Below, piece after piece: positions 4,661-61,219 of a DNA stretch of 64,000 nucleotides (positions are counted from its first letter, which is position 1; each line of letters begins with the position of its first letter). The notes under the pieces are model-generated. The model did no database searches. It saw only the letters and a list, made by a program, of their open reading frames with translations, and was not told where the DNA came from. The stretch covers positions 806,001 through 870,000 of the forward strand of contig NZ_BBMK01000001.1 of assembly GCF_000755285.1 (NCBI RefSeq). The letters are read 5' to 3'. The translations under genes and the position numbers were made by a program. Source of the DNA: Nonlabens ulvanivorans. Its GTDB lineage: Bacteria > Bacteroidota > Bacteroidia > Flavobacteriales > Flavobacteriaceae.

Positions 4661-4676
4661 CGCTTTCGCGAAAGCG
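4661..4676. repeat. Iterated palindrome, perfect copy, intergenic
   Basis: Exact CGCTTTCGCGAAAGCG, flanked by A and T so that the palindrome extends to 18 bases. It lies between the mfd terminator and the end of the next gene. Confidence 0.95.
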
Positions 4677-4690
4677 TAGTTTCAATAATC

Positions 4691-5122
4691 CTACAGCCAC
4701 TGGCTCCATGGTAATCTAGTCAATACCAGAATAAAGGCAAGTGAGTAAAATATAGCTAGTACTTTAAGTTTCCCGTTGCTCACAATTTTCTTTTTATGCT
4801 TTGAGTAGCCCATTGTTAGAAGAGTAATAGCAATGATCATAGTCAAGGGATGCTCAACTAACATAAGGCGCGCCTCAGGATTACCCATCACTTCTTTCAT
4901 TCCACCAGACCAAGCGTCAAACCATGGAGAAGTAAAGTATAATACCAGGCCTATTAATAGTTGAATATGTGTTACTATAAGACCACCTAGTGCTAGACTA
5001 AAGTCTCTGTTACCGAATTCTTTTTTAGTAAAGTATCCTATAAGCGAATTGATAGTGGCTAGTCCCAATACAATAACGACGATATATGCCCAACCTGAGT
5101 GTGCGTGTTTTATAATTTCCAT
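4691..5122 (-). CDS. Four-helix integral membrane protein, function unknown
   Basis: A protein of 143 residues with four predicted membrane helices (around YIVVIVLGLATINSL, LALGGLIVTHIQLLIGLVLY, LTMIIAITLLTMGY and VLAIFYSLAFILVLT) and a conserved-looking His near the N-terminus (HAHSGW). An in-frame upstream TTG at 5143 would add seven residues, but ATG at 5122 gives a natural N-terminus. Short membrane proteins of this type are common in Bacteroidetes and are sometimes annotated as cytochrome b-like; I do not see enough to name a function. It is read in the same direction as the TonB receptor gene but separated from it by a strong terminator. Confidence 0.7.
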   Translation of the reverse strand: MEIIKHAHSGWAYIVVIVLGLATINSLIGYFTKKEFGNRDFSLALGGLIVTHIQLLIGLVLYFTSPWFDAWSGGMKEVMGNPEARLMLVEHPLTMIIAITLLTMGYSKHKKKIVSNGKLKVLAIFYSLAFILVLTRLPWSQWL

Positions 5123-5157
5123 AGTGTTGTAATTTGATTTCAAAAATAACTATAAAC

Positions 5158-5189
5158 AAGAAACCCTACTCAATTGAGTAGGGTTTCTT
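5158..5189 (-). terminator. Terminator after the TonB-dependent receptor gene
   Basis: A perfect 32-base inverted repeat with 16-base arms (AAGAAACCCTACTCAA and its complement) followed by T-rich sequence on the minus strand, just downstream of the receptor stop codon at 5217. Confidence 0.85.
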
Positions 5190-5216
5190 TATAAAATGTA
5201 TGTATTAAGATCGTTC

Positions 5217-8456: not shown

Positions 8457-8475
8457 TCAGTTATAGTTTGAGCTG

Positions 8476-8503: not shown

Positions 8504-8565
8504 TATTAAGTTAACATTAAGAATATTAAAAACTTATTAACCGTAACGCTTTGAAAAACAGAAAA

Positions 8566-10207
8566 TTAATTATTTAAGCTGCCAAATCTCTTCAAAATTC
8601 CGGTTGTTGAACTATCGTGGGCGGCATATTCTTTATTTTCTATGTTGTCTAGGACTTTGTCTGCAAGAACTTTTCCTAATTCAACGCCCCCATTGATCGT
8701 AACTATAAATATTCCAGATAACACCTTCCGTAAAAATTTTGTGTTCATACATAGCGACTAACTTACCGATGCTTTGTGGTGTAAGTTCATCAATTAATAT
8801 GGTTGTAGTAGGTTGATCTCCTTCAAATACTTTAAAAGGCAATAGCATTTCAATCTCTTCTTTGCTTTTACCAGATTTTTCTAGATCTTTTTTGGCCTCA
8901 CCTCTTGTTTTACCATTCATTAACGCTTCAGTTTGCGCAATGAAATTTGCCATAAGTTTATTATGGTGATCATGATGGTTGTATTTCGCTTTCGCGAAAG
9001 CGATAAAATGAGCAGGTATTAATTTAGTTCCTTGATGAATTAATTGAAAAAATGCATGCTGCGAGTTGGTCCCAGGTTCTCCCCCCCATATGATGTTACC
9101 TGTGTCATAGGTAACTGAGTTGCCATCGCGGTCAACACATTTACCATTGCTTTCCATAATGGCCTGCTGTAAATAAGCAGGTAATCTATGTAGGTATTGT
9201 GTATATGGGATAATAGCCTCGCTTTGCGCGCGATAAAAGTTATTATACCATATGGTCATTAATGCTAATTGAACAGGAATGTTTTTTTCAAAATCAGTGT
9301 TTTTGAAATGGTTGTCCATGTCATGTGCGCCGTCTAATAATGATTGGAAATTTTTAGTCCCTATTCCTAGAGCTACAGACATACCTACGGTGCTCCACAA
9401 TGAAAATCTACCACCTACCCAATCAAACATCGGGAATATGTTTGCATGATGTATACCAAAGTTGACTGCTTTTTCTACATTGCTGCTTACTGCGATAAAA
9501 TGCTTTGAAACCGCATCTGCTCCTATTTTTTCTGTAAACCAGTTTCTAATGGTTGTTGCGTTAGTCAATGTTTCTTGTGTACCAAAAGACTTTGAAACGA
9601 TAACAAATAGTGTCGTTTCTGGATTTATTTTTTTAAGTACTTCTTCTACATGATCACCTTCAACATTTGAAACAAAATAAAGAGTCATGTCGTTTTTATA
9701 TGCTTGTAAAGCTTCATAAATCATTACGGGTCCTAGATCACTACCGCCTATACCTATATTAACGATAGTATCAAACTTTTTACCACTGGCTGTTAATGTT
9801 TTACTATTCAGTACACCGTCAACATAGTTAAACATCTTTTGTTTACTCTCGATGGCTTCATTTACGTTGCTAGCAACACTGCTGTCTGCATTGGACTGTG
9901 GTGTTCTTAATGCAGTATGTAAAACGGCACGTTTTTCTGTCGCGTTAATAATCGCTCCATTATAGTAAGAATTAATAGCATCTTTTAAACCACACTCTGT
10001 AGCAAGCGCTGTAAGAAGGGTTCTGGTATTTTCTGTAATTAAATTTTTAGAAAAATCGACATAAAAATCCTTGTCTATTAACGTGAGCTTTTCTGCTCTA
10101 GAGGTGTCTTTTTTAAACTCTTCTCTAAGGCTGAAATGGTCAAAACCTTCAAAGTGTTTTTCTAGTTTAAGCCATGCGTTTGTTTCCGTAGGATTTATAT
10201 TTTTCAT
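8566..10207 (-). CDS. pgi: Glucose-6-phosphate isomerase (frame broken near the C-terminus)
   Basis: Pgi interconverts glucose-6-phosphate and fructose-6-phosphate. The frame from 10207 carries the family signatures: IVNIGIGGSDLGPVMI in the N-terminal sugar isomerase fold, FDWVGGRFSLWSTVG, EPGTNSQHAFFQLIHQGTK, and the start of the C-terminal signature (HKIFTEGVIWNIYSYDQWG). A C5 tract at 8687-8691 shifts the frame. With four bases there the protein continues as GVELGKVLADKVL to the stop at 8566, as expected for the family. A second tract (C7 at 9081-9087) adds a Gly, giving WGGEPGTN where the family has WGEPGTN. The iterated palindrome at 8987-9002 is read here as AFAKA. The gene overlaps the upstream M23 peptidase stop codon by a few bases, suggesting co-transcription. 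Confidence 0.93.
8687..8691. repeat. G5 tract (C5 on plus) that breaks pgi
   Basis: TGG followed by extra G. Four G instead of five would restore the conserved C-terminus of Pgi. Confidence 0.85.
8987..9002. repeat. Iterated palindrome, perfect copy, inside pgi
   Basis: Exact CGCTTTCGCGAAAGCG within the pgi coding sequence, read as AFAKA. Confidence 0.95.
9081..9087. repeat. G7 tract (C7 on plus) in pgi
   Basis: Exactly seven G, read as Trp-Gly-Gly within IIWGGEPGTN. The conserved family motif has a single Gly at this place, so three G appear to be extra. Confidence 0.9.
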
Positions 10208-11444: not shown

Positions 11445-12410
11445 TTATTTTGTGTTTAATGCGTGTTCAACCCATTGTTTTCCCCAGTTATCGATCTCAT
11501 CTTGAGTCCAAAGTTCTGGATAGAAAATAATTTTTTGAAAACTAGGAGGCAAGAATTTCTTCCAGTTCGTTCCACCGGTTGCTTGAATAGGATCGCCTTC
11601 TTTTCTTAAATAGCGATGGGCACTTCCCATGTGCATTAGTTTCCAGTTGATGTTAGCGTTTTGGTCATGTGCGCGCATGGCGTCCATCAGTTCTTTTGTT
11701 TTTTCTTCTTCAGGTAATTGCAGATAACGCTGGTAAATGTTAGAATCTTTTACCTCATGTGCGATACGCAAGAATCTAGGTGTGTAACGTTCTTCAAACT
11801 GTTTTAGTGTAAGTGTTTTTTCTTGGGTATGCATATCGATACCACCTTGCTTCCAGTAACAGTGATTGTAGAGTTCTTCTAGGTTGTCGTTCTCGCTTTC
11901 GCGGAAGCGTTCTCTAACATCTGGATGTACTACATTGATCAAATCACTGCTGTAAAATTCAATCATACGGAACTGTGCACTTTGAAATCCACTAGCTGGC
12001 AATAATGACATGCGGAATTTCAAAAACTGCTCGCGTTCCATTCCTTTAATCATTACCTCAAAAGAGCTAATTAATATGCCGAAATAACGATTGATACGGC
12101 GCAATTTTTCTGCAAAGAAAGAACCTGTTAGGTCTTTACTTTCAATGATTTGTAACTGCTCATGTATGATAAGTTTAAAATAAAGCTCAGTAATCTGATG
12201 GTAACCTATAAAAATCATCTCATCTGGAAAATGAGTAGAAGGCACTTGTAAACTTAGTAATGTGTCTAATCTTATGTAATCCCAATAGGTAATGTATTGG
12301 TCGTATAACAGTCCATCGAGATAGGAGAGCATGTCCTGACCTGAATTCTTAAATTTCTCTTCTAGCAACTGAATGCGTTGCGCGATTTCTGGACTGATTT
12401 CCTGTGACAT
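11445..12410 (-). CDS. kynA: Tryptophan 2,3-dioxygenase family protein
   Basis: This intact 321-residue protein matches heme-dependent tryptophan 2,3-dioxygenase, which opens the indole ring to give N-formylkynurenine, the first step of the kynurenine route. Visible signatures are FIGYHQITELYFKLIIHE (the His region that contacts substrate), LLPASGFQSAQFRMIEF, and the C-terminal GSAHRYLRKEGDPIQATGGTNWKKFLPPS. Length and motifs fit the Bacteroidetes branch. A near-perfect copy of the iterated palindrome at 11894-11909 is read as RFRES. Homogentisate dioxygenase, another ring-opening enzyme, lies 2 kb away on the same strand. No other kynurenine pathway gene is visible. Confidence 0.88.
   Translation of the reverse strand: MSQEISPEIAQRIQLLEEKFKNSGQDMLSYLDGLLYDQYITYWDYIRLDTLLSLQVPSTHFPDEMIFIGYHQITELYFKLIIHEQLQIIESKDLTGSFFAEKLRRINRYFGILISSFEVMIKGMEREQFLKFRMSLLPASGFQSAQFRMIEFYSSDLINVVHPDVRERFRESENDNLEELYNHCYWKQGGIDMHTQEKTLTLKQFEERYTPRFLRIAHEVKDSNIYQRYLQLPEEEKTKELMDAMRAHDQNANINWKLMHMGSAHRYLRKEGDPIQATGGTNWKKFLPPSFQKIIFYPELWTQDEIDNWGKQWVEHALNTK
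11894..11909. repeat. Iterated palindrome, one mismatch, inside kynA
   Basis: CGCTTTCGCGGAAGCG, one base different from the consensus, read as RFRES. Confidence 0.85.
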
Positions 12411-15299: not shown

Positions 15300-15315
15300 C
15301 GCTTTCGCGAAAGCG
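15300..15315. repeat. Iterated palindrome, perfect copy, intergenic
   Basis: Exact CGCTTTCGCGAAAGCG just beyond the stop codon of the patatin gene, between it and hmgA. Confidence 0.95.
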
Positions 15316-19378: not shown

Positions 19379-19394
19379 CGCTTCCGCGAAAGCG
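19379..19394. repeat. Iterated palindrome, one mismatch, intergenic
   Basis: CGCTTCCGCGAAAGCG, one base off the consensus, between uvrC and trxA, which are divergent. Confidence 0.85.
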
Positions 19395-22463: not shown

Positions 22464-22479
22464 CGCTTTCGCGAAAGCG
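22464..22479. repeat. Iterated palindrome, perfect copy, intergenic
   Basis: Exact CGCTTTCGCGAAAGCG with flanking A and T (18-base palindrome), midway between two divergent genes. Confidence 0.95.
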
Positions 22480-27680: not shown

Positions 27681-28334
27681 TTAATCCTTAATAGTAATGT
27701 TGCTATTTATGGTTTCTATTTTCTGATTATAATAAATAATAGGTTCATTAACTATTTGAGTTATGACACCATATTTTGAGGACATTTCTATATAAGATGA
27801 CGGGTTAGTAACTACAACCATCGCATTTACTGATACGATGTGAAAATCACCTCTTACATTTTTTAATAAACAGCTGCCAGATTCTAGATTAATGAAAGAA
27901 AATTTAAAGTTACCATTGATGGTTAAATAGCAATTACGTGAGTTAATATCTAGAATTAAATTTTCAGGAACGTAAATCGTTGCTTTTCCATCAATAACCT
28001 TATGTGCACTCAATTTATCTTGTGGAAAAGAGAAGCTGGGATTAAATGGATCGGTAATTTTTAAAGTATCGTTAGATATTTCTGTGTTTAACAAAACAGC
28101 GCTTCTGTATTCGCCACCTTGACTTTCAATTATTTTAACTTGGTCCTCTTTAGTAGCAATTATTTCTAGCTCTATGGTAGATTCTAGAAAGATGTCAATC
28201 GTAGTGATTCCAGAATTAGCATAAATAATATGACTAGAATTACGTTGTGATTGCGCTTTCGCGAAAGCGAATACTAAAACAATACTTAAATAAAAACTCC
28301 TTTTAACTATAGGATATTTATGCAATAGAGCCAT
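27681..28334 (-). CDS. Exported beta-rich protein, DUF4097/DUF2807-like
   Basis: 217 residues with an N-terminal signal peptide whose end is encoded by the iterated palindrome (VFAFAKAQSQ). The rest shows short alternating strands (TIYVPENLILDINSRNCYLTING; FINLESGSCLLKNVRGDFHI) like the repeated beta-helix of DUF4097 and related adhesin-head proteins. No enzyme motif is seen and the function is unknown. It lies between lspA and dksA on the same strand. Confidence 0.65.
   Translation of the reverse strand: MALLHKYPIVKRSFYLSIVLVFAFAKAQSQRNSSHIIYANSGITTIDIFLESTIELEIIATKEDQVKIIESQGGEYRSAVLLNTEISNDTLKITDPFNPSFSFPQDKLSAHKVIDGKATIYVPENLILDINSRNCYLTINGNFKFSFINLESGSCLLKNVRGDFHIVSVNAMVVVTNPSSYIEMSSKYGVITQIVNEPIIYYNQKIETINSNITIKD
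28254..28269. repeat. Iterated palindrome, perfect copy, inside a signal peptide
   Basis: Exact CGCTTTCGCGAAAGCG, read as AFAKA at the end of the signal peptide of the 27681-28334 protein. Confidence 0.95.
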
Positions 28335-28758: not shown

Positions 28759-31700
28759 CTATATTTTTTTAATCTGTATTGAGGTCACAATGTCGTCAAA
28801 TTCAACAATCGTACCATTATCTACAGTTTGTATTAGTGTTAAATTATCTGCTAGTGTTTCATCCATGATATATTGCTCATTAGACTTAACTGCATCATCA
28901 ATCTCACTTTGCGATTGTATCATAATATTGATACGATCAGTTACCTCGAGTCCTGAGTCTTTTCTTATGTTTTGAATACGATTCACAAGTTCTCGTGAGA
29001 TCCCTTCCTTCTTAAGCTCAGGCGATATCGTTACATCGAGCGCAACGGTTATTCCAGATTGATTTGCTACTAGCCATCCTTCTATGTCCGAAGATGTAAT
29101 CTCCACATCTTCAAGGGTCAAGATAATTGCATTTCCATTTACTTCAACCTCTTTTTGTCCAGTTTTTTCTAACAAAACGATGTCTTCCTGTTGAAAACTT
29201 TTAATTTTCCCGGCGATTTGTCCCATGGCTTTACCGAATCTAGGTCCCAGCGCTTTAAAATTAGGCTTGATTTCTTTTACTAGAATCCCACTGGCATCAT
29301 CTATTAATTCGATCTCTTTTACGTTTACTTCACTCTTTACAAGATCTGCAATTGCTTCTATTTGTGCCCTATCTTTTGCATCTAATACTGGTATCATGAT
29401 ACGTTGCAAAGGTTGACGTACTTTGATACTTTCCTTTTTACGTAACGATAAAGTAAGACTAGAAATTACTTGTGCTTTGTGCATTTTTTCTTCCAGCGCT
29501 GCGTCTATTAAAGACTCATCTGCTTTAGGGAATAATTCAAGATGTACACTTTCGCTAGCGTCACTTTCACAAACTCCAGTTAGGTCGCGATATAATTGAT
29601 CCATATAGAATGGAGCAATAGGCGCGCCTAATTGTGCTACTGTTTTAAGACATGTATATAATGTCTGGTATGCAGCAATTTTATCTTGCTCATAAGTTCC
29701 TTTCCAGAAACGTCTTCTACATAAACGCACGTACCAGTTACTCAAGTTCTCAGTTACAAAAGTCGTGATTGCTCTAGCAGCTTTAGTAGGTTCATAATCT
29801 TCATAGAAAGCCGTAGTGTCTTTTATCAAAGTATTTAACTCAGATAAGACCCAACGGTCTATTTCTGGACGTTCTTCTAATGGAATGTTAGCTTCACTAT
29901 AAGTAAACCCATCCACATTTGCATACAGACTGAAGAAAGAATACGTATTATAAAGTGTGCCGAAAAACTTACGTTGCACTTCTGTGATACCGTCTAAGTC
30001 AAATTTAAGGTTGTCCCATGGATTTGCGTTACTCACCATGTACCATCTAGTAGCATCTGCTCCATATTTACCTAAAGTTTCAAAAGGATCTGCTGCGTTA
30101 CCTAGACGTTTAGACATTTTCTGTCCATTTTTATCTAGTACGAGTCCGTTAGAAACTACATTTTTATAAGCCACGTCATCACTTATCATGGTAGCGATAG
30201 CGTGTAGTGTGTAGAACCATCCACGAGTTTGATCCACACCTTCGGCAATGAAGTCTGCTTTTCTCAGTTGATTTTCTACTTGTTCTTTATTTTCAAAAGG
30301 GTAATGCCATTGAGAATAAGGCATAGAACCAGAGTCGAACCAAACATCAATAAGGTCTGACTCACGCGTTAGTTTCTCTCCGTTTTTACCTACTAGATAA
30401 ATGTCGTCTACCACGTTTTTATGAAGATCTACAAGATTGTAATTCTCTTCACTCATATCGCCAGTTTTAAAACCGGCAAAAGGATTAGATGTCATGAATC
30501 CGGCTGCGATAGATTTCTCTATCTCTGCTGTAAGTTCTTCTATAGAACCTATGATCATTTCTTCAGTTCCAGTTTCATTTCTCCATATAGGTAATGGGAT
30601 TCCCCAGAAACGAGAACGAGATAAATTCCAGTCGTTTGCGTTTGCCAGCCAGTTACCAAATCTTCCTTCTCCGGTAGATTTAGGTTTCCAGTTGATAGAT
30701 TTATTCAATTCATGCATGCGGTCTTTAAATTCCGTCACTTTTATGAACCAACTGTCTAGTGGGTAATATAAAATAGGCTTATCAGTTCTCCAGCAGTGTG
30801 GGTAACTGTGCACATATTTCTCAACTTTAAAAGCACGGTTCTGTTCTTTTAAAGCAATTGCGATATCAACATCTACAGAGCGTTCTGGAGCTTCTCCTTC
30901 TGCAAAATATTCGTTCTTTACATACTTACCACCTACTTCAGGCAACTCATCTCTAAATTTTCCTTGAAGCGTTACAAGTGGTACTGGATTTTGATTTTCA
31001 TCTAGAACCAGCATCGGTGGTATAGGTGGATTTGCCTGTTTAGAAACCAGTGCATCGTCTGCACCAAATGTAGGTGCTGTGTGTACGATTCCTGTACCAT
31101 CCTCAGTAGTTACAAAGTCTCCTGCGATTACTCTGTAAGCATCTTGTGCGTTTTCATACGGTTGTGCATAAGGCAACAACTGCTCGTATCTTAAATTTAC
31201 CAGATCAGTTCCTTTACAAGAACCTAATAACTGATAAGGGATTTTTTTATCTCCTAATTTGTATTCTTGTTTCGCTTTCGCGAAAGCGTCACCTTCTAAA
31301 AGCTCATACTTCTTACCAAACTGGTAGCTCACTAATTTCTCAGCAAGAATCACCTGCATAGGCTCTCCAGTATATTGGTTAAAAGTCTCAGCTAGTACAT
31401 AATCGATTTTAGGACCAACGGTAAGCGCAGTGTTAGATGGCAGTGTCCATGGAGTAGTAGTCCAGGCTAGGAAAAATACATTTCCATTGTTTTCAAATGG
31501 TAATTTTGAGGGATCCTCAACTTTAAACTGTGCAGTAACTGTTGTGTCCGTAACATCTTGATAGGTTCCAGGCTGGTTCAACTCGTGCGAGCTCAATCCA
31601 GTTCCTGCAGCTGGAGAATAAGGCTGGATGGTGTAACCTTTATAAAGTAAATCTTTGGAATAGATTTCTTTTAATAGCCACCATACAGATTCCATATATT

Positions 31701-32350: not shown

Positions 32351-33589
32351 ATGTCACAAGACGTCATCGAACCCAAGGCAACGCTAGAGCCTTTTCCTTA
32401 TCATAAAATGTTGAGAGATCATTTAAAAAGTCGGAAGAAGACCTGGCAATGGTTTAAAGATGAAAAAATTAAAACGCAACAAATAGAATCTTTTAAAAAA
32501 GAGCTTCTTAAAAACACCTATAGACTCGATACAGACAGTCATCACAATCTCTACCAGATGGCGCAAGATATTTGTGTAGATTTAAATATAGATGCACAGG
32601 TTACTTTGTATCAAGAGAATAATAGCCTACAGTTAAACGCAAGTATATCTGTAATAGAACGAGAAGCGCACATTGTGCTGTCTGGAAATATATTACAATT
32701 GCTCGATGAGAAACAACTCAAAGCATTGCTTGCACACGAGCTATCGCATTACTTGTTTTATAAATTAGAAGGTGGAGAGTACGAGATTACACAGCGTATC
32801 ATTCTTGCCCTAGCAAACGATTCTCGTAGCGAAGATAGCATCGTAGAAACTGCACGTATCTTTCAATTATACCTAGAGCTTTTTTGTGATGCAGGCGCAT
32901 TTAAATCTTGCCGTGAGCACTATACCGTTATTCAGGCTTTAATCAAACTCAATACTGGACTTGCTGAAGTGAACGCACAAAGCTATCTCGATCAAGCAAA
33001 AGAAATCATTAGTCAAGATGATGAAGCCACAAATCAACCAACTCATCCAGAATCTTATATACGTAGTATCGCTCTAGATCTAAAAGCACGCGGCTCACAA
33101 GAATATCACGAGGAACTGCACAAACTCATAGAAGGAAAATGGGATATCAACAGTCTAGATATTTTTGAGCAAGAAAAAACACGAGCGCTTTCAAATGACT
33201 TTATACAGCTTGTCCTTAGACCACAATGGATGAATTCTAGTGCGGTACTCAATCTCGCTCAACAATTTTTTACAGATTTCACAAGAGAAAAAGAAGTGGA
33301 CACCACTAAACTGCTGGAACGTTTAAAACACACCACACCTAGTACAAAAAGCTATTTATCTTATGTCTTATTAGATTTTGCTAGAATAGACAGCACACTA
33401 GAAAAATTGCCTATTGCACACACCTTAGAAATAGCAGAATTGTTAGGTCTAGTAGAAGAATACGAACGAGTGCTGAGAAAAGAACTCAAACTTACCGTTC
33501 GCAGTTTTAAAGATTTAAAGCAAGAGGCGATGAAGGATTTGAGTAACGTTAATGAAAACCAAGATAACAGCATCTACGATAATGAGTGA
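32351..33589 (+). CDS. M48-like metalloprotease, partner of the large helicase
   Basis: 412 residues, no signal peptide or membrane helix, so cytoplasmic. The zinc-protease motif HELSH is at about residues 129-133 (LLAHELSHYLFYKLEG). A downstream ELFCDAGAF segment fits the third zinc ligand of M48 enzymes, and THPESYIRSIAL resembles their conserved His-Pro-x4-Arg element. The C-terminal 150 residues are helical and unassigned. Its stop overlaps the start of the helicase gene by 8 bases (ATGAGTGA), so the two are translationally coupled and likely work together. M48 enzymes are usually membrane-bound; a soluble one tied to a helicase-nuclease is unusual. Confidence 0.75.
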   Translation: MSQDVIEPKATLEPFPYHKMLRDHLKSRKKTWQWFKDEKIKTQQIESFKKELLKNTYRLDTDSHHNLYQMAQDICVDLNIDAQVTLYQENNSLQLNASISVIEREAHIVLSGNILQLLDEKQLKALLAHELSHYLFYKLEGGEYEITQRIILALANDSRSEDSIVETARIFQLYLELFCDAGAFKSCREHYTVIQALIKLNTGLAEVNAQSYLDQAKEIISQDDEATNQPTHPESYIRSIALDLKARGSQEYHEELHKLIEGKWDINSLDIFEQEKTRALSNDFIQLVLRPQWMNSSAVLNLAQQFFTDFTREKEVDTTKLLERLKHTTPSTKSYLSYVLLDFARIDSTLEKLPIAHTLEIAELLGLVEEYERVLRKELKLTVRSFKDLKQEAMKDLSNVNENQDNSIYDNE

Positions 33590-36500
33590 TTATAAAGCAA
33601 GTTTTTTCAGTCTGCTGGATGAGGTGAAAGATCACGGCGGTAGCACCACAGCAGATTTTATTGCACGTGTATTGCCACTTATAGAAAAGGCTCATTTTTT
33701 GAGATCTCGCAATCTGGTGCTTGGGATTTATTCTATTGAAGATATTTACTTTAATGGAAGAATCATCGCTATAGATTCTGAAGGTAAAGAGTTTAGAACA
33801 GGAAAAAATAGGATATTTAAAAAGCCTAAGCAGCGCTATGCCGTTGAGGTAAGTGGTAATTATAGTGAAATAAGTAAGATTGAAGGTGATGATTATGACC
33901 AGCACATCTATGATGATGAGGCGATTCAAGAAAATTTTGAAAAATCTATTACTAAGCCTGTTTACCTTGCACGATATAAAAGTTGGGATTTAGAAACAGG
34001 ACATTATGATCCTATTACTGAGATTTTTACACTGGGTTTTATACTGGCATCAGTTGCATATGGTATAGATTTTAGAGATACTGAAGAGCTCAAGCGTTTT
34101 GTAGAAAACCGCGAGCGATTGTACTTCTATAATAAAGATTTACATCCTACCGTACATCACGTGATTAGGGAAATGACACCTTTGTACAGAGAAGATCGTG
34201 CGCCTAGTCTCGAAGAAATTATTGCAAAACTCAAAAATTACCGCGATTTCAATCCAGAGAACTACGTTGACTTAACAGATACTGAAGGTTTCCGTAATTT
34301 GAATCTGTCTGATCGTGGTAGCTATATTCTAGATAAATTAAAACGCAGGCTTTTTGATATTTCGCGCAGGAATAAGTTGCTTTATTTTAATGATCGTGGT
34401 GGTTTCTTAAACTTGACAGAAGCCTCAGTGCCTATGTTGCTAGACTATAAGAACATCACTGAAAGGGATTTGATTTTTTGGAATGCACATATTCAATCAC
34501 AGTTTATTTCAAAGAAAACGGTCAATCTTAATAGATATCTAGAACTCGATAAAAACAGATTTTTAAGCCCAGCACTTAATAAAATAAGACTCGAGGCGCG
34601 CAAGAGTAAAAACGAATATGGTTTTGACCAGTTGCGTGTAGTTATCGCCTTTTTACACTGGTATAATTTTAAAGAAAGTGAAGACGAGCGCATCAGTTCA
34701 CCGTTATTGTTGTTACCAGTTTCTCTGGTAAAAAAGAAAGGTGTAAAAGATCGTTTTGAATTAAACGTAAATGATTCTGAGGCTGAGATCAATCCAGTAT
34801 TGAGTTATTATCTCAAAGATTTATACGGTATTGAATTACCAGATTTTATAGACTTAGAAGCCAGTTCTATTGAAGAACTCGTACAAAGTATTAAAAATCA
34901 AATATCACTAGGTGGCACAGGAATCGAATTAAAATGGAGAGATCAACCTAAAATCCAGTTGATTCACAAACTGGCAAAACGCAATTTCAAACTTAAAAAG
35001 CGCAAACTTTCTAATCGCAATTCTGGTTTAAGCACACGCAGTTATGACTATTCTTATGACGCTCAAAATGTAAAACCGCTAGGACTCGCCATTTTCAATA
35101 ATCTTATTGCCAAAAAACACAACGAGCTCGAGTACATCATTAATGAGGACATCAATCCGTACAGCGACCTTGCGGTTGCAGAGCGACGTCGCAGTTTTTA
35201 CCATACAGATAATGACGGAGACGTAAATCCGCTGGTGTGGGAAGTGGATACTTGTAATATGACCATAGGTAATTTTAAGTACCGTAAGATGAGTCTGGTA
35301 CGAGATTATTCTGAGATTTTAAAAGCCGATATTAAAGATGACGTCTTTGATGAACTCTTCAGTGAACAACCTAGAAAAATCAATCTCGAAGGCTATAAAA
35401 AAACCAGCCTAGCAGATCTGTATCCTATAATCCAGTCAGATCCTACACAATCTCAGGCTGTTTTAAAAGCACGATCTGGTGAGAATTATATCATTCAAGG
35501 ACCACCAGGAACAGGAAAATCACAAACTATAACTAACCTCATTGCAGACTATGTGGCGCGCGATAAAAAGGTGCTTTTTGTTTGTGAAAAACGTGCCGCT
35601 TTAGATGTTGTGTTTCATCGTTTGAAAAATAAAAAATTAGATGAGTTGTGTTGCTTGATTCACGATTCCCAAACCGATAAAAAAGCCTTTATAATGAACC
35701 TCAAGGATACCTATGAGGCCTTTATGAAGAAGGATATGAATACTTCTACGCTTTCGCGAAGCGTGAAAAAATCATCAATCAAATAGAAACACATTTAGGG
35801 AAGTTGGAGCATTTTCACGATACGATGCGTGATGGAATGCCACCACTTTATGAGCTGTTTCAAGAGTTGATTACCTATTATCAGACCAAAGAAAAGCTCA
35901 GTGATAACGAGCTGATTTATGTGCCGTTTTACAAAGAATGGCAAGAAAATGAGACCTGGATTACAGAAATGATTGCTCAAATAAAATTGAACGATCACGG
36001 AAAGAATATTGCAGATTATGCCTTTAATGGTCTTTCTCCTGTATTACTCGATGCGTCTAATTCTAAAGGAGTAGTTCTAGAAAAAATAGAAGAAACGCTA
36101 AGCCTACTTGACCGCTTGAATGAGCTGCTCGATGAGCAAGAAGTTCCTGTAAAAACACAATCTGTTGCCGCGTGGCGACTGGAATTTAACTTTGCGGCAA
36201 AGGTTTCAAAAATAGTGGCGCAAAATGCTTTAGGAATCTTTGACACCAGTACTATTGCGGCTTCTAACTTAGATAATCTTAATAGAAGAATTGAGAAACA
36301 ACGCAAGTTGCACTTAAGGCTTATAGAAGAAAATGAAAACTGGACCCAAAAATTAAATGCGACCGACGCTAAAATTGCTCAAGAACAATGGCAACGATTA
36401 GACGGTAGTTTCTTTAAGTTTTTGAATCCTAACTGGTATAAAATAAAAGGTCAACTTAAGACGGCTTATAATTTTAGGCTCATAATATTGCGCCTACTAT

Positions 36501-39804: not shown

Positions 39805-42264
39805 CTATTCCCACTTCAACTGCATCCTTTTAATACGATCAGCAAGTTTCTCGCTACTTAACTTTTCGCGCAAGCGGTCTGTGATGATTGGAAAAGAGAA
39901 TGGAGTAGGTTTTTTACAAGCTTTCCATACTATTTCTTGTTTTTGGATACGCTCTAAAGCTTCGCGCAAGCGATATTCTTCAATTGCGTTTTCAAAAGTT
40001 TCTGTATAAGCTTGACGGAACAATAAATTATCGGGTTCATTATCTCGGAACACTTCAAATAGTAGCTGACTGCTATTTTGCAGGTGTTTTGTTTTTACCG
40101 CTTTATTAGGATAACCAGTAAATACTAATCCAGATATCACTGCGATATCTCTAAACTGCCTACGAGCCATTTCTGTTGCATTCATACTGGCCTGTAGGTC
40201 TTGCGATAACATATCTGGTGTAAGCAAATCATTATCCAGGATCTCTTGCATATCAAAAGCTTGATCGCTTAAAATCTCAAAACCATAATCATTAAAAGCC
40301 AGTGAGAACGTGATAGGTTTTAATAAGCTCACTCGATAAGCAATAATTCCTGCCATAGCCTCATGGACAAATCGGCCTTCAAAAGGATAGAAAACAGCGT
40401 GATAACCTTCACGAGTTTTAAAAGTTTCAATTAAGAACTCATTTTTCTGTGGAACGATGCTTTCTAACTGCTGTCGCTTGATAATTTCTTTGAGCGCTTT
40501 TACTTCTGGAGTTCGCTTTTTACCGGTTTGAAAGTTCTCCATTTCATCACGCAGGAGTTCGCCTAGTTGAGCGCTCAACGGCAGGCGGCTACCTTGCCAG
40601 CTAGAAACCGTATTTGTTTTTTTAGTGGTGTTTTTTACGTGAGCAATCATTCCTTTTAAGCGGATAAATTCTAGCGTGCGACCAGCAAAAATAAATACGT
40701 CGCCACGATCCATTTTGCTTATAAAGTATTCTTCTACACTACCTATGTAGCCACCAGATTGATATTTTACCGTTACTGTAGTAGAACCTACTATAGTTCC
40801 CATTTGTAAGCGATGGCGCATTGCGATACGTCTATCATCTATAAAATACCGACCGGTATCATCTATTTTTACCTTTTTATATTCATCATAAGATTGTAGG
40901 GAAGAACTACCGTAGACTATAAAATCCAGACACCATTTCCATTCCTCATCAGTAATTGCAGCAAAGCAAAATGTGTTTTTAACCTCTGGATATATCTCAT
41001 TAGGATAAAAACCACCAGAAACCGCTAGTGTGCACAAATACTGAATCAATACATCATAGCATAAAATATAGGGCAATCGATCTTCTACGGCTTGTGTAGC
41101 GACTGCCTTTTGCAGTGCGCTAGCTTCTATTAATTCCAGTGCATGCGTAGGTAAAAAATGAATCACACTGGTTTCTCCAGGTCTGTGACCAGAACGTCCA
41201 GCGCGCTGTAAAAAACGAGCCACACCTTTAGGTCCGCCTACTTGAATAATCGTTTCTACAGGTGCAAAATCAACACCTAAATCTAGTGATGAGGTGCAAA
41301 CACAAGCCCTTAAGCTTTCGTTTCTAATCGCATTTTCCACCCAAATGCGCGTTTCTTTATTAATCGATCCGTGATGCATCGCCACCTCACCAGCAAACTC
41401 TGGATGTTTAGACATTAACGACTGGAACCAAAGTTCACATTGCGCTCGAGTATTTGTGAAAATCAAGGTAGAACGACTAGAATTAATGATTTTCACTACA
41501 TCTTCAAGTAAATGCAATCCTAGGTGACCACGCCATGGAAATTTATCCATACTCGCCGGAATAATGGATTGCACTTTGATGTCTTTTTTGATGTTGGCTT
41601 TAATTAATACGCTTTCGCGAAAGCGGTTTTCATCAACACCTAGTAACACTTCACGAGCTTGTTCAAGATTACCAATCGTAGCACTAATTCCCCCCCAAAC
41701 TCTGAGGTCTTTACTCAAGCCAAGAAGTCTAGAAATACCGAGTTCCATTTGAACACCACGTTTAGTTCCTAGCAACTCGTGCCACTCATCAATAATGATG
41801 GCTTGACAATCTTTAAAGATTTTGGCGTGATCCTTTGAGCCTAATAATAAATGTAAGCTCTCTGGAGTTGTGATAAGTAAATCCGGCATTGATTTACGTT
41901 GTGCGGCGCGTTCTTTAGTAGTCGTATCACCACTGCGTATCCCAACAGTAAAAGGCAAATCTATACCATCTACAAATCGCTGTGATGCCTGTGCGATTTC
42001 CTGACTTAACGATCTCAATGGAGTAATCCAAATCGCCTTGAGCCCTTTTTTAGGTTTCTTTTTATAGTCGGGATTCTTTTTTATGTAATCTAGAACAACG
42101 GCAACCCAAAGCGCATAGGTTTTTCCACTACCAGTAGGTGCGTTCAATAATCCATGCTTACCAGATAAAAATGCATCCCAAGTCTTTTTTTGAAATGGGA
42201 AAGCACTCCAGCCTTGCTGGTCGAAGTATTCTTGGGCGATGGTATTAAGTTGTTCTCGGTTCAT
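39805..42264 (-). CDS. Ligase-associated Lhr-type DEXH helicase
   Basis: An 819-residue Lhr-core helicase, a 3'-5' DNA translocase. Motifs: NAPTGSGKTYALWV (Walker A, about residue 40), IIIDEWHELLG (DEWH box, DEXH type), GGISATIGN, and motif VI RFLQRAGRSGHRPGE. The winged-helix and Lhr-specific C-terminal regions follow. This version is found together with an ATP-dependent ligase and an MBL-fold exonuclease in many bacteria, both present upstream here, as a DNA damage response module. A G7 tract at 41690-41696 gives VWGGISATIG; I expect one Gly. The palindrome at 41610-41625 is read as RFRES. Confidence 0.92.
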   Translation of the reverse strand: MNREQLNTIAQEYFDQQGWSAFPFQKKTWDAFLSGKHGLLNAPTGSGKTYALWVAVVLDYIKKNPDYKKKPKKGLKAIWITPLRSLSQEIAQASQRFVDGIDLPFTVGIRSGDTTTKERAAQRKSMPDLLITTPESLHLLLGSKDHAKIFKDCQAIIIDEWHELLGTKRGVQMELGISRLLGLSKDLRVWGGISATIGNLEQAREVLLGVDENRFRESVLIKANIKKDIKVQSIIPASMDKFPWRGHLGLHLLEDVVKIINSSRSTLIFTNTRAQCELWFQSLMSKHPEFAGEVAMHHGSINKETRIWVENAIRNESLRACVCTSSLDLGVDFAPVETIIQVGGPKGVARFLQRAGRSGHRPGETSVIHFLPTHALELIEASALQKAVATQAVEDRLPYILCYDVLIQYLCTLAVSGGFYPNEIYPEVKNTFCFAAITDEEWKWCLDFIVYGSSSLQSYDEYKKVKIDDTGRYFIDDRRIAMRHRLQMGTIVGSTTVTVKYQSGGYIGSVEEYFISKMDRGDVFIFAGRTLEFIRLKGMIAHVKNTTKKTNTVSSWQGSRLPLSAQLGELLRDEMENFQTGKKRTPEVKALKEIIKRQQLESIVPQKNEFLIETFKTREGYHAVFYPFEGRFVHEAMAGIIAYRVSLLKPITFSLAFNDYGFEILSDQAFDMQEILDNDLLTPDMLSQDLQASMNATEMARRQFRDIAVISGLVFTGYPNKAVKTKHLQNSSQLLFEVFRDNEPDNLLFRQAYTETFENAIEEYRLREALERIQKQEIVWKACKKPTPFSFPIITDRLREKLSSEKLADRIKRMQLKWE
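41610..41625. repeat. Iterated palindrome, perfect copy, inside the Lhr helicase gene
   Basis: Exact CGCTTTCGCGAAAGCG, read as RFRES (ENRFRESVLIKAN). Confidence 0.95.
41690..41696. repeat. G7 tract (C7 on plus) in the Lhr helicase gene
   Basis: Exactly seven G, read TGG GGG GGA as Trp-Gly-Gly next to the SAT helicase motif. The frame is kept. Confidence 0.9.
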
Positions 42265-47764: not shown

Positions 47765-47780
47765 AGCTTTCGCGAAAGCG
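47765..47780. repeat. Iterated palindrome, one mismatch at the edge, intergenic
   Basis: AGCTTTCGCGAAAGCG; the inner 14 bases are a perfect palindrome. It lies between divergent genes. Confidence 0.88.
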
Positions 47781-53670: not shown

Positions 53671-54156
53671 ATGATACAGATAAAAGAAGCTAGTATAAAT
53701 GATTATCCTAGAGTGTTAGAGCTTATTCAAGAGTTAGCTACTTTTGAAAAAGAGCCAGATGCGGTAGAGATAACCGTTAACGATTTAATAAAAAATGGTA
53801 GTGGTAATCATCCGCTTTTTAAATGTTTTGTAGGTTTTTATAATGATAAGATTGAAGGAATTGCACTTTGCTATCCGAGATTTTCAACTTGGAAAGGAAA
53901 GACAATTCACCTTGAAGACCTTATTGTTACACAAAGCTTAAGAGGAAAAGGTCTTGGAAAAGCATTGTATAATCAGGTGATGAAATATGCATTTGATGAA
54001 AAAGTACGTCGGGTAGAATGGGTCGTGCTGGATTGGAATGAAGGAGCAATAGAGTTTTATAAAAATACGGGAGCAACAATTTTAGAGGATTGGCATCTCG
54101 CACAAATGGACGAGGAATCGCTCCGTAATTATGTTTTAAGAAATGAAGATATTTAA
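53671..54156 (+). CDS. GNAT family N-acetyltransferase
   Basis: 161 residues with the GNAT fold: acetyl-CoA-binding motif LEDLIVTQSLRGKGLGKALYNQVM (Arg/Gln-x2-Gly-x-Gly/Ala type) and the following VRRVEWVVLDWNEGAIEFYKNTGA. It resembles diamine/polyamine acetyltransferases, with ATFEKEPDAVEIT near the N-terminus as in spermidine/spermine acetyltransferase-like proteins, but the substrate is uncertain. The stop overlaps the aspartokinase start by 14 bases, so the two are co-expressed. Confidence 0.87.
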   Translation: MIQIKEASINDYPRVLELIQELATFEKEPDAVEITVNDLIKNGSGNHPLFKCFVGFYNDKIEGIALCYPRFSTWKGKTIHLEDLIVTQSLRGKGLGKALYNQVMKYAFDEKVRRVEWVVLDWNEGAIEFYKNTGATILEDWHLAQMDEESLRNYVLRNEDI

Positions 54157-55422
54157 GTTTGGTGGTGCGTCAGTAAAGGACGCCGCTGGTGTGCGCAACG
54201 TCGTACAAGTAGTTCAAACTATGGGCTATGATGGCTTAGGGGTAGTAGTTTCTGCAATGGGCAAAACAACTAATGCATTAGAGGATATTGTTAAATGCTA
54301 TCAGAATAATAATCAAGCATACCTGACTCTTATTGATGAGTTATTTGCTAAACATCTAGAAATTGTATCTGATCTAGAAACTAATGGTGCTAGTGAGGAT
54401 GTTTTGATACGCTTTCGCGAAAGCGAACTTAAAAAAGATCTTAAGGCAACTATAGAATCCTTAAAAGGTACCATGTTGCGCAACCAAAGTAAAAATCACG
54501 CTTTTATCTATGATCAAGTAGTGAGTCATGGAGAATTACTTTCTACTCAAATTGTAGCAACCTATTTTAAGGCTCATAAAATTCTAGTAGAATGGATGGA
54601 TGCACGTCAATTGATAAAGACTGATCAAAAGTATAGAGATGCAGCTGTGAACTGGAAAGAGACAGAGAACTTGATTAAAAATAACTGTGCTGGGAAACTA
54701 TTTTTAACACAAGGTTTTATAGGGTCTGACGATAATGGTTTGACTACAACATTAGGTAGAGAAGGAAGTGATTATACTGCGGCTATTCTACCTATGCTCT
54801 AGACGCTAGCCATGTAACCATTTGGAAAGATGTGCCTGGAGTATTAAATGGTGATCCTCGTGTGTTTGATAACACGGTACTTTTAGAACAAATATCATAT
54901 CGCGAGGCTATAGAATTAGCTTTTTATGGAGCTAGTGTTATACATCCTAAAACCTTACAGCCGCTTCAAGGTAAGCAAATTGAGTTGAGAGTAAATTCTT
55001 TTCTAGATCCACAGTCGCAAGGTACCGTTATTAAAGAAGGTGATGCAGTAAAGCCTATGACGCCATGTTATATCGTACGCAAGAACCTTGTCTTTTTAGA
55101 GATTTCTGCACGTGATTTTAGTTTTATTGGAGAGCATAATATCAGTGATATCTTTCATCAGTTAAGTGAGAGTAAAATGCAAGTAGGATTATTACAAAAC
55201 TCAGCTATTAGCTTAACCATTTGTGTAGAGGATAAATATGATAAACTATCTGAATTGTTAGATGACCTAGAAGCTCGTTACATTGTAAACGCAGTAAGTG
55301 ATGTGTCACTTTATACTATAAGACACCATAGTGATAATGCAATTGAATCTATAGAAAATGGAAAAGAGGTGCTTTTAAGACAGCGCACTCAAGAAACTTT
55401 GCAGCTAGTCGTAAAAGGATAG
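54143..55422 (+). CDS. Aspartate kinase (frame broken)
   Basis: It phosphorylates aspartate, the entry to lysine, threonine, methionine and diaminopimelate synthesis. The kinase part starts MKIFKFGGASVKDA and continues with VVVSAMGKTTNAL and TTLGREGSDYTAAI. A missing G near 54790 (CTACC for CTAGCC) stops the frame; with it, the text reads AAILAYALDASHVTIWKDVPGVLNGDPRVF into the second part, which ends in a two-ACT regulatory region (VFLEISARDFSFIGEHNI...). About 426 residues, monofunctional, without a fused homoserine dehydrogenase. The palindrome at 54410-54425 is read as RFRES. Confidence 0.92.
54410..54425. repeat. Iterated palindrome, perfect copy, inside the aspartate kinase gene
   Basis: Exact CGCTTTCGCGAAAGCG, read as RFRES (LIRFRESELKKD). 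Confidence 0.95.
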
Positions 55423-57295: not shown

Positions 57296-57297
57296 AT

Positions 57298-58353: not shown

Positions 58354-58383
58354 TCTTGTTTCTTTTTTTTCTTAAGTTTTTTC

Positions 58384-58827
58384 TTAACTTTTTTTAATGG
58401 CTTTAGTTTTTTCAATCTTTTTTAATTCAGATTCTATAAACTCTTCACAGTAAGCTTGAATTTTCTTTCTCGCTTTTGCGAATGCACCTTCATCACCATT
58501 ATTAAGATCTTCAATATTTGAAATAGGGAATTCTATAATACTAGCTTTATCAGAAATCGAGTCCGGTATGTGACTAGCTATATCTTCTCCTATAGTGATG
58601 ATATAGTCAAATGATATTTTTTTATAGTCGTTGATATGATTAGAAGAATAATCAGATATGTCTATGCCAACTACATCCATACTGTCTATAACTGTAGTAT
58701 GTATCTCTTCTGGCTCTAAACCAGCACTATAAATTTGAGCACGTTCATTGGTAAAATAATCCATAAACCCATGTGCCATTTGACCAGCCGTGGCGTTAGA
58801 TATAGAAAGAACTAGTATATGAAGCAT
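58384..58827 (-). CDS. Low-molecular-weight phosphatase-fold protein lacking the catalytic Cys and Arg
   Basis: 147 residues with the start of a low-molecular-weight tyrosine phosphatase/arsenate reductase (HILVLSISNATAGQMAHGFMDYF...IYSAGLEP). In active members the loop is Cys-x5-Arg; here Ser8 and Ala14 take the places of Cys and Arg. The C-terminal general-acid Asp-Pro is also not seen (IIEFPISNIEDL). The fold looks retained (FDYIITIGEDIASHIPD), so it may be a binding-only pseudophosphatase. The codons at the loop are clear and no indel would restore the motif. Poly-A tracts at the 3' end leave the last residues uncertain. Confidence 0.75.
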   Translation of the reverse strand: MLHILVLSISNATAGQMAHGFMDYFTNERAQIYSAGLEPEEIHTTVIDSMDVVGIDISDYSSNHINDYKKISFDYIITIGEDIASHIPDSISDKASIIEFPISNIEDLNNGDEGAFAKARKKIQAYCEEFIESELKKIEKTKAIKKS

Positions 58828-58959
58828 TGAGGATTCACTAGATTAGTAATAAGTACTAGGTTAATGTTAAGTCAAAGTTAAGACGACTATTTATGTTACA
58901 CAATAAATACTTTAAACCTTAACATTAAAGTTGTTAAGACGTTGTTTGTTAGTTAGTTG

Positions 58960-59334: not shown

Positions 59335-59362
59335 ACTTTTTTAATTTAAAGGTATTAATGTT

Positions 59363-59752: not shown

Positions 59753-59754
59753 AA

Positions 59755-60687
59755 TTAGTGGTTCTTAATGATTTTACTTGCGATAACATGTGCAAGTTTA
59801 TATTTGGACTCGACGGTCCAGCCAGCGACGTGTGGACTCAATAAAACATTATCCATCTTTAACAGCTTTTTAAAAGGTAAAGGCATCTCACTATCAAATA
59901 AGGATGTAAAAGAACTTTTTTCATATTCTAAAACATCTAATCCAGCACCTTTTATTTTACCCAATTCAAGTGCATTAACTAGGTCTGCTATAATAACGGA
60001 TTTACCTCTAGCTGTATTGATAAGGTAAAATGGTTTTTTAAATCCAGCTATAAACTCTTTATTAACCATTCCGGTCGTTAAGTCTGTTTGAGGTGTATGC
60101 AAACTCAATACGTCTGCCTGAGATTGTAATTCTTTTAAAGGTACTTGCGTGGCGTTCTCATCTTCTATTCCTTTTATAAGATCATAAAAAATGACTTTAC
60201 AATCAAAACCAGATAGCTTTCTAGCAAATGATTTTCCCATATTACCATAACCTATCAATCCAACAGTTTTCCCTTCTAGTTCTATACCGCGATTCTCTTC
60301 TCTTAACCATTTACCATTACGCACTTGTTGATCTGCTCTATTCATATGATTGAATAGGGATAATAACATGCCTAATGCATGTTCACCTACCGCATTGCGA
60401 TTACCTTCAGGAGCATTGTAGCATGCGATATTAAGCTCTCGGGCGACATCTAGATCTATGTTTTCTAATCCAGCACCTACACGACCAAGAAATTTTAATT
60501 TTATAGCAGCTTTTAAAAAGTCCTTGTCAATAGGGAATCTACTGCGCACAATAAGACCATCATAATCACTTATAACTTTTAAGATATTTTCTTTTGAAGA
60601 TGTGTAATCGTGGTGATTAGTATAACCAGCATCTTCTAGCATGGTGGCAAGAATATCATGATTAGAGTCTAGGTGCAGTACTTTCAT
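59755..60687 (-). CDS. D-isomer-specific 2-hydroxyacid dehydrogenase
   Basis: 310 residues, two Rossmann domains. NAD-binding motif GLIGYGNMGKSFA near residue 145, catalytic Arg in NTARGKSVI, Glu in the following GLDVLEYE and His in SPHVAGWT, as in the D-lactate/phosphoglycerate dehydrogenase family. It has no ACT domain, so it is more likely a short 3-phosphoglycerate or general 2-hydroxyacid dehydrogenase. Co-transcribed with the VOC gene. Confidence 0.87.
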   Translation of the reverse strand: MKVLHLDSNHDILATMLEDAGYTNHHDYTSSKENILKVISDYDGLIVRSRFPIDKDFLKAAIKLKFLGRVGAGLENIDLDVARELNIACYNAPEGNRNAVGEHALGMLLSLFNHMNRADQQVRNGKWLREENRGIELEGKTVGLIGYGNMGKSFARKLSGFDCKVIFYDLIKGIEDENATQVPLKELQSQADVLSLHTPQTDLTTGMVNKEFIAGFKKPFYLINTARGKSVIIADLVNALELGKIKGAGLDVLEYEKSSFTSLFDSEMPLPFKKLLKMDNVLLSPHVAGWTVESKYKLAHVIASKIIKNH

Positions 60688-60705
60688 CGTTTAAAAATAA
60701 ATTTA

Positions 60706-61182
60706 TTAATAATCTATCATATTCAATTCTTGTTCAAAATCGTATTGTAAATCCTCATGCAAGGTACTTATGCGCACTTTGATGAGAACAATCTGTCGTG
60801 TACAAATGTCTCTCAATACTTTACTTTGTGAGTAATAGGGTTGAAAGTCTTGAAGTAATTTACAAAAATGGATGAGTACAGCCACTTCTGTCTCTTTATT
60901 ACCAGAGTACCTTATAAACTTTTTTGCATCTTTTAAAACCTTACGTATTCCTTTTTTTGCATAGTAAATATTACGTGTATTAACAGATAGGAATTGTTCA
61001 TCTAGATTTGCCTTTACACTATCTACATAATCATCTTCATGATGCGCTTCAAAGAGTAAATAAGTGAGTAGTTCTTTATTCTCTTTTTTGAAACGTGATA
61101 AGCGCAGGACGATTTCCATGAGCTCTTTTTCGTCCTTGTATTTAAGTTCGTCTTTGAGTTCTTTAACGCTGGCCGTTTTCAT
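60706..61182 (-). CDS. Helical protein of unknown function
   Basis: 158 residues, predicted all-alpha, charged, without signal peptide or membrane segment (KELKDELKYKDEKELMEIVLRLSRFKKENKELLTYLLFEAHH...). I do not recognise a family. It lies between the dehydrogenase gene and a palindrome copy, 40 bases from mgtE, all on the same strand. Confidence 0.68.
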   Translation of the reverse strand: MKTASVKELKDELKYKDEKELMEIVLRLSRFKKENKELLTYLLFEAHHEDDYVDSVKANLDEQFLSVNTRNIYYAKKGIRKVLKDAKKFIRYSGNKETEVAVLIHFCKLLQDFQPYYSQSKVLRDICTRQIVLIKVRISTLHEDLQYDFEQELNMIDY

Positions 61183-61203
61183 GTAGTTGTTTGATGTTAT
61201 ATA

Positions 61204-61219
61204 CGCTTTCGCGAAAGCG
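61204..61219. repeat. Iterated palindrome, perfect copy, intergenic
   Basis: Exact CGCTTTCGCGAAAGCG with flanking A and T, just beyond the mgtE stop codon. Confidence 0.95.

What the first reader, a model, noticed from the sequence alone, without database searches (positions are those of the whole stretch)
4661..61219. A 16-base palindrome iterated about every 4.5 kb (HIP-like family)
CGCTTTCGCGAAAGCG occurs exactly at 4661, 8987, 15300, 22464, 28254, 31273, 39744, 41610, 54410 and 61204, and nearly exactly at 11894, 19379, 35749 and 47765. A given 16-mer is expected once in about 4.3 billion bases of random sequence, so ten copies in 64 kb need an explanation. It resembles the HIP1 palindrome of cyanobacteria in density and in being scattered inside and between genes, but differs in sequence. 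Possible roles: methyltransferase recognition, nucleoid or segregation factor binding, DNA uptake signal, or repair marker. I know of no described function for it.
Basis: partly seen in the sequence, partly recalled or inferred. Interest (0 to 1): 0.85.

Follow-up and report, generated by a model that had tools for sequence, protein, structure and literature searches.

The report
Evenly spaced palindrome in marine flavobacteria
Marine bacteria of the genus Nonlabens carry hundreds of copies of one exact 16-letter DNA palindrome, laid out about every 4.5 thousand letters and kept almost unchanged between species (two related genera have it too), which suggests a marker that the cell reads on its own DNA, though what reads it is not yet known.

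Summary
The window is from a Nonlabens genome (3.09 Mb) with 372 exact copies of CGCTTTCGCGAAAGCG; the reversed control has 0. All 22 other sampled genomes of the genus have 180-737. Of 397 family genomes, only this genus, Dokdonia and one unnamed genus have hundreds.

New facts. (1) Sites avoid each other: mean gap 4537 bp, CV 0.44, smallest 1098 bp in 864 kb (random CV 0.99); shown for Nonlabens only. (2) Sites keep their places: third codon positions in the core are 95% identical, against 68% at 30-200 bp. (3) The unit is the full 14-16 bp plus T-rich tracts 6-12 bp outside. (4) Sites are scarce in accessory DNA and absent from two Nonlabens phages, but present on other phage contigs.

Best explanation (0.4, inferred): a self-DNA marker read by a symmetric protein, most likely a DNA uptake sequence for natural transformation. 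Main rival: sites of a chromosome-organising protein. Methylation, Chi, REP and ParB readings fit less well. No description was found in the open-access library searched.

The parts
4661..4676 (.). exact palindrome copy, intergenic by the ORF list (convergent ORFs)
8987..9002 (.). exact copy inside phosphoglucose isomerase gene (reads A-F-A-K-A)
11894..11909 (.). one-mismatch copy inside a tryptophan-dioxygenase-like gene
15300..15315 (.). exact copy, intergenic, just past a stop codon
17508..17523 (.). two-mismatch copy inside a patatin-like gene
19379..19394 (.). one-mismatch copy upstream of uvrC; exact in relatives G002 and G011
22464..22479 (.). exact copy, intergenic (divergent ORFs)
28254..28269 (.). 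exact copy inside ORF 27681-28334
31273..31288 (.). exact copy inside ileS; exact in 4 of 6 relatives compared, one mismatch in the other 2
35749..35763 (.). 15-bp copy, one base short of the consensus, inside the first piece of a ProA-like anti-phage gene
39744..39759 (.). exact copy, intergenic by the ORF list
41610..41625 (.). exact copy inside a ligase-associated DEXH helicase gene
47765..47780 (.). one-mismatch copy, intergenic (divergent ORFs); exact in G011
54410..54425 (.). exact copy inside ORF 54143-54802
58471..58486 (.). decayed three-mismatch copy; the same place is an exact copy in G002
61204..61219 (.). exact copy, intergenic, just past a stop codon

Best explanation
The palindrome is the recognition core of an extended element of roughly 40 bp with dyad symmetry (16-bp core plus a T-rich tract 6-12 bp out on each side), read as double-stranded DNA by a symmetric protein. 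It works as a self-DNA marker whose effect reaches a few kilobases, so one copy per stretch is enough and extra copies bring nothing; that would space the copies. I think the most likely process is natural transformation: DNA fragments that carry a copy are taken up and recombined preferentially, so copies spread and are restored, as for the uptake sequences of Neisseria and Haemophilus. Shown: genome-wide over-representation, regular spacing (Nonlabens), conservation of the DNA sequence itself and of its places, depletion in accessory DNA and in two phages, near-restriction to one clade, presence of candidate uptake genes. Inferred: the reading protein, its symmetry, and the uptake function.
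For: Spacing: CV 0.44, smallest gap 1098 bp for 191 sites; in 2000 random placements the lowest CV was 0.80 and the largest minimum gap 169; variance/mean of counts 0.15 per 48 kb. Conservation: third codon positions identical 0.946 in the core (n=294) against 0.682 at more than 30 and up to 200 bp (n=5287); 91 of 93 alignable G002 sites have at most 2 mismatches in the window's genome (4 of 97 were not alignable). Extended symmetric flanks in genes and between genes, without mirrored complementarity. Intergenic excess 79 of 191 against 25.4 expected, no gene-orientation bias (with a gene caller of my own). Accessory DNA: 3 sites in 49 kb, about 10.8 expected. Two Nonlabens phages: 0 sites with up to 3 mismatches in 70.7 kb, one with 4. 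The genome encodes ComEC (C25:1020624) and an adjacent DUF5689 / CarboxypepD_reg-Plug pair of the same domain types as the pair essential for Riemerella transformation (PMC8459023: abstract, passages, section 20). R. columbina prefers its own DNA (PMC7965970 section 16). Neisseria DUS spacing matches conversion-fragment size and DUS are themselves highly conserved (PMC2397512: abstract and passages).
Against: Known uptake sequences are not palindromic (recalled) and are shorter (9- and 10-bp cores, PMC7811141 passage). I found no report on transformation of these genera and did not test it. The uptake genes are in 33 of 33 genomes tested, with or without the motif, so they do not explain who has it. 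Faster-evolving flanks, as reported for Neisseria, are seen over 41 exact sites in six relatives (about 0.755 within 10 bp against about 0.855 beyond 40 bp) and weakly between genes (0.80-0.81), but not inside genes in the G000-G002 comparison (0.867 and 0.898). Tailed-phage contigs carry copies too, which phages would not need for uptake unless they live as prophages. No comparable evenly spaced motif was found in 9 motif-negative genomes (40-60 kb each), though in two of them (G145, G245) clustered repeats filled the top of the list shown. Even spacing was not established for Dokdonia or G234: 6 gaps each, 1 of 6 and 0 of 6 under 1 kb; the exact 12-mer has CV 0.66 in Dokdonia pacifica loci chosen by the motif and 0.72 in G234.
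Confidence: 0.4

Rival explanations
1. The copies are binding sites of a chromosome-organising or segregation protein (a nucleoid factor of ParB/Noc, SlmA or MatP style, but genome-wide), dividing the chromosome into units of about 4.5 kb.
For: Dyad-symmetric 16-bp core with symmetric flanks; very even counts along the chromosome, 9-13 per 48 kb over 864 kb; strong conservation of place.
Against: No part of the chromosome was found empty: each of 20 stretches of 20 kb spread round the complete relative G009 holds 1-6 sites, unlike Noc, SlmA or MatP sites (recalled); ori and ter were not located beyond GC skew. No extra ParB paralogue: 1 ParB in each of 7 motif genomes. Copies on phage contigs and scarcity in accessory DNA are not direct predictions.
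Confidence: 0.25
2. A protective self/non-self mark: a palindromic Chi-like or anti-nuclease site that stops a DNA-degrading or defence machine within a few kilobases of an end.
For: Mean spacing resembles that of Chi (about 4.6 kb, recalled; 5.9 kb in the 200 kb measured); depleted in two phages and in accessory DNA; some phage contigs carry several copies.
Against: E. coli Chi (GCTGGTGG, recalled) in 200 kb of MG1655 is spaced at random: n=34, CV 0.96, smallest gap 51. Known Chi sites are 5-8 nt, read on single-stranded DNA and directional (recalled); a 16-bp palindrome with symmetric flanks is unlike them.
Confidence: 0.12
3. A HIP-like sequence made and maintained through DNA methylation and repair.
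For: Palindromic, iterated, in and between genes; one-mismatch variants concentrate at the two outermost positions (my hand count from the list: 28 of 58), as PMC4390886 reports for HIP1 (abstract).
Against: The unit is long for a type II methyltransferase (general knowledge); flanks up to 12 bp out take part; density lower than HIPs; regular spacing not expected. The methyltransferases of these genomes were not surveyed.
Confidence: 0.1
4. A REP-like or other mobile palindrome that spreads by insertion.
For: Many near-identical copies.
Against: 112 of 191 copies lie inside genes; the two G002 sites that are decayed in G000 remain there as 3- and 4-substitution remnants in aligned DNA, not as empty sites; no larger strongly conserved unit flanks the core. 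Against this: in four sites of more distant relatives (3 in G006, 1 in G003) the window's genome shows 7-9 differences, some with gaps, so their origin is not resolved.
Confidence: 0.03

Closest known systems
DNA uptake sequences of Neisseriaceae and uptake signal sequences of Pasteurellaceae
   Same: Hundreds of copies or more, relatively even distribution, permissive places, strong conservation, AT-rich flanking tracts (USS), scarcity in newly acquired DNA (PMC2397512 and PMC7811141: abstracts and passages)
   Different: Palindromic, 16 bp, lower density (about one per 4.5 kb against about one per 1 kb for USS), different phylum; uptake not shown
HIP1 of cyanobacteria (GCGATCGC) and alternate HIPs
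   Same: GC-rich palindrome iterated through the genome, in and between genes
   Different: Twice as long, rarer, regularly spaced here (spacing of HIP1 itself was not measured); no methyltransferase link tested
Noc, SlmA, MatP and ParB binding sites
   Same: Palindromes of similar length read by dimers (recalled)
   Different: Tens of copies and uneven along the chromosome there (recalled); here hundreds, even, with no extra ParB paralogue
E. coli Chi
   Same: Similar density (4.6 kb recalled; 5.9 kb in 200 kb)
   Different: Asymmetric 8-mer, randomly spaced

Membership tests
DNA uptake sequence (DUS/USS) | preferential uptake of DNA that carries the motif | not testable with these tools
   needs a transformation or uptake assay
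DNA uptake sequence (DUS/USS) | hundreds or more copies, far above expectation | tested here: met
   372 against 0 for the reversed control; 180-737 in 22 of 22 other genomes of the genus
DNA uptake sequence (DUS/USS) | relatively even spacing | tested here: met
   G000 CV 0.44 against 0.99 random; G002 CV 0.46 over 460 kb; six relatives 0.29-0.48 over 60 kb each. All Nonlabens; too few gaps in Dokdonia and G234
DNA uptake sequence (DUS/USS) | faster-evolving sequence next to the motif (reported for Neisseria) | tested here: inconclusive
   seen, not inside genes
DNA uptake sequence (DUS/USS) | transformation machinery in the genome | tested here: met
   ComEC and DUF5689 pair present, but ComEC and DUF5689 are in 33 of 33 genomes, so not specific; DprA, ComF and the HHH protein were not searched
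DNA uptake sequence (DUS/USS) | short asymmetric word (typical of known cases, recalled) | tested here: not met
   16-bp perfect palindrome
HIP | GC-rich octamer-scale palindrome at 1000-2000 per Mb | tested here: not met
   16 bp, about 120 exact copies per Mb
HIP | methyltransferase that recognises the core | not tested
   no survey of methyltransferases or methylation data
Noc/SlmA/MatP-type site | large chromosome regions without sites, relative to ori and ter (recalled) | tested here: not met
   9-13 sites per 48 kb across 864 kb; 1-6 in each of 20 stretches round G009; ori and ter not located beyond GC skew
Chi | directional short word (recalled) | tested here: not met
   palindrome; spacing unlike E. 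coli Chi
REP | mainly intergenic, spreads by insertion (recalled) | tested here: not met
   112 of 191 inside genes; substitution remnants in the two decayed sites; RAYT transposases not searched

The most novel reading that the evidence does not exclude
A molecular ruler of the bacterial chromosome: an unknown symmetric protein marks DNA at near-regular intervals of about 4.5 kb through a 16-bp palindrome with flanking tracts, fixed at nearly the same places between Nonlabens species (and with the same motif in Dokdonia and a third genus), and sets the size of folding, replication or repair units.
Probability: 0.25. Interest if true: 0.93.

Novelty: new variant of a known kind. Interest (0 to 1): 0.76.

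Why it matters
If it is an uptake sequence, it would to my knowledge be the first found in the Bacteroidota, where transformation uses an unusual machinery (PMC8459023) and preference for own DNA has been reported without an established motif (PMC7965970 section 16). If it is an architectural site, it would be an unusually regular genome-wide marker in bacteria. Either way there are hundreds of nearly identical, well-placed sites that can be used as bait, so the reading protein should be findable, and the old question of what iterated palindromes do becomes directly testable in culturable marine bacteria.

Tried and rejected
Restriction to the window: rejected. Codon or composition effect: rejected (Markov-5 expectation 0.05 against 117; third positions conserved; 79 of 191 intergenic). 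Short methyltransferase site as the unit: weak. Asymmetric longer element: an orientation-finding fit gave no strongly one-sided flank. Hairpin extended into the flanks: no mirrored complementarity. Terminator or promoter role: no bias by orientation of neighbouring genes. Extra ParB reader: none in the 7 motif genomes. Dialects in other genera: none of the same kind in 9 motif-negative genomes at 40-60 kb each (in G145 and G245 clustered repeats filled the list shown); an unrelated 8-mer, TTCCGAAG, appeared instead and is not evenly spaced in the listed places. Uptake genes as the discriminating factor: universal in 33 genomes. A search for one- or two-edit copies with indels by regular expression returned only the exact copies and was replaced by listing single-base indels: 7 extra copies in 864 kb. 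A HIP1 spacing control was not obtained.

Full report
WHAT IS THERE. Two further weak copies lie at 17508 and 58471. The window is part of a 3.09-Mb draft genome (25 contigs, completeness 86.94) with 372 exact copies and none of the reversed control.

WHO HAS IT. Of 59 genomes (own plus 58 relatives), all 23 of the genus have 180-737 copies; 1 of 13 from other genera of the family has 4; 0 of 23 from other families. The 14-mer GCTTTCGCGAAAGC in 397 genomes of the family: 80 have at least one; the four of this genus have 487-664, G234 has 408, G250 (Dokdonia) 857, and the other 74 have 1-19; the reversed control occurs in one genome. An IleRS tree of 30 genomes puts Nonlabens, Dokdonia and G234 in one clade (support 89/96, below the tool's star) that also holds G188, whose genome has only 9 copies of the 14-mer; the tree needs two changes, so one gain and one loss is the simplest reading, not a proven one.

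WHAT THE UNIT IS. In 864 contiguous kb the numbers with 0, 1, 2, 3, 4 and 5 mismatches are 117, 58, 16, 7, 29 and 80: a sharp peak, then the chance background; 7 more copies have a single-base indel. TTTCGCGAAA occurs 154 times and never outside the motif; TTCGCGAA 162 times, 8 outside. Flanks deviate symmetrically: T at -2 (0.69), T at -9 (0.65), C-poor to about -17, T-rich 6-12 bp out (0.50 against 0.32 background). This holds inside and between genes, and the two sides vary independently (mirrored complementarity z between -2.5 and 2.1 without a trend), so it is not a longer hairpin. Two symmetric contact regions about a helical turn from the core are the simplest reading (inference).

SPACING. 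For copies with up to two mismatches the mean gap is 4537 bp, CV 0.44 and the smallest 1098 bp (n=191). In 2000 random placements the mean CV was 0.99, the lowest 0.80 and the largest minimum gap 169. Counts per 48 kb are 9-13, variance/mean 0.15. Neighbouring gaps are not correlated (-0.05), so this is mutual avoidance, not a lattice. Five of the six largest gaps hold a weaker match: three with 3 mismatches and two with 4, the latter possibly chance. G002 gives CV 0.46 and minimum 1214 over 460 kb; six relatives give 0.29-0.48 over 60 kb each. The avoidance is not absolute: in 20 stretches of G009, 3 of 59 gaps are under 1 kb, the smallest 388, where about 18% would be expected at random. All these are Nonlabens; for Dokdonia and G234 I had too few gaps to judge. 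E. coli Chi, at a similar density, is random (n=34, CV 0.96).

WHERE THE COPIES SIT. With a simple gene caller of my own, 79 of 191 copies are intergenic against 25.4 expected; 112 are in genes, 63 of them in the phase that reads A-F-A-K-A. Orientation of neighbouring genes does not matter. Accessory DNA (not alignable by blastn between G000 and G002) holds 3 sites in 49 kb where about 10.8 are expected.

CONSERVATION. Between G000 and G002 (86% identity), third codon positions inside the core are 94.6% identical, against 68.2% more than 30 bp away and 77% at 2-30 bp. Of 97 G002 sites, 4 were not alignable in one test; of the other 93, 91 have at most two mismatches in G000 and two are decayed by 3 and 4 substitutions. 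A differently built test gave 90 shared, 6 G002-only and 1 unaligned. In the window, the four sites alignable to G003 (73% identity where aligned, 35% of the window) have 0 or 1 mismatch there. Flanks within 10 bp are less conserved than the surroundings over 41 sites in six relatives and between genes, but not inside genes.

MOBILE DNA. Two Nonlabens phages, P12024S and P12024L, have no copy within 3 mismatches in 70.7 kb. In contrast, a scan of viral contigs gave 41 stretches. Some, such as L345, L340 and L335, are tailed-phage pieces with portal, head, terminase or tail genes and carry three copies each (up to 2 mismatches), 1.8-5.1 kb apart; four stretches with more than 60% GC look like chance hits. 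Their life cycle was not resolved.

HOW IT MOST LIKELY WORKS. The pattern asks for a function that acts over a few kilobases, needs one copy per stretch and sees double-stranded DNA through a symmetric protein. Uptake sequences have most of these traits: spacing that matches conversion fragments, location in permissive regions and strong conservation (PMC2397512, abstract and passages), relatively even distribution explained by biased uptake (PMC7811141, abstract and passages). Members of the wider group are transformable with a distinctive machinery (PMC8459023, abstract, passages and section 20), R. columbina prefers its own DNA, and no uptake motif has been established there: its authors list only A-rich words of 7-10 bp, untested (PMC7965970 section 16). 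The window's genome has ComEC and the DUF5689 plus CarboxypepD_reg/Plug gene pair. A chromosome-organising protein explains symmetry and regularity equally well, and I keep it as a close rival.

WHAT IS KNOWN. The 12-mer CTTTCGCGAAAG is in no paper of the open-access library; no paper there has Nonlabens, Dokdonia and palindrom* together; none joins DNA uptake sequence, Bacteroidetes and overrepresented; 14 papers name highly iterated palindromes, and by title none of them is on flavobacteria; two join uptake sequence, Flavobacteri*, transformation and motif: the R. columbina paper and one on Thermus. TTTCGCGAAA is in ten papers, seen as a listing only; one is on words absent from genomes, the other titles are unrelated. 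Papers outside this library were not searched.

Noticed in passing
Of 239 family genomes, 18 by my count have at least 30 copies of a longer form and more than twice the control; the motif-bearing genomes in that set do not. Some copies lie in pairs within about 100 bp. It could be another uptake-like word.
   Followed up: partly
G131:C1:2561727, G122:C1:2829431, G259:C1:1156266, G145:C1:436588: In four genera with only 4-6 copies of the palindrome core, two copies lie exactly 933 bp apart, in three of the four near further copies: perhaps DNA moved from the motif-bearing clade.
   Followed up: no
G033:C18:76088, G145:C1:2364602, G245:C1:1862932, G259:C1:1204417: Long ParB-like proteins (about 600 aa) lie about 6-33 kb from palindrome clusters, suggesting integrated mobile elements that carry the palindrome.
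   Followed up: no
window 33552-38499: A ProA-like anti-phage gene is split over three ORFs in three reading frames (or the draft sequence has errors); the shortened palindrome copy at 35749 lies near the end of the first piece.
   Followed up: no
L345 (9058) and L340 (10858), viral contigs: Two divergent phages carry a palindrome copy about 100 bp from the 3-prime end of a small ORF that lies between the major head and portal genes.
   Followed up: partly
G188 genome (unnamed): Sits inside the motif-bearing clade in the IleRS tree but has only 9 copies, and no replacement word was found in 60 kb: a likely loss and a useful contrast for finding the reading protein.
   Followed up: partly
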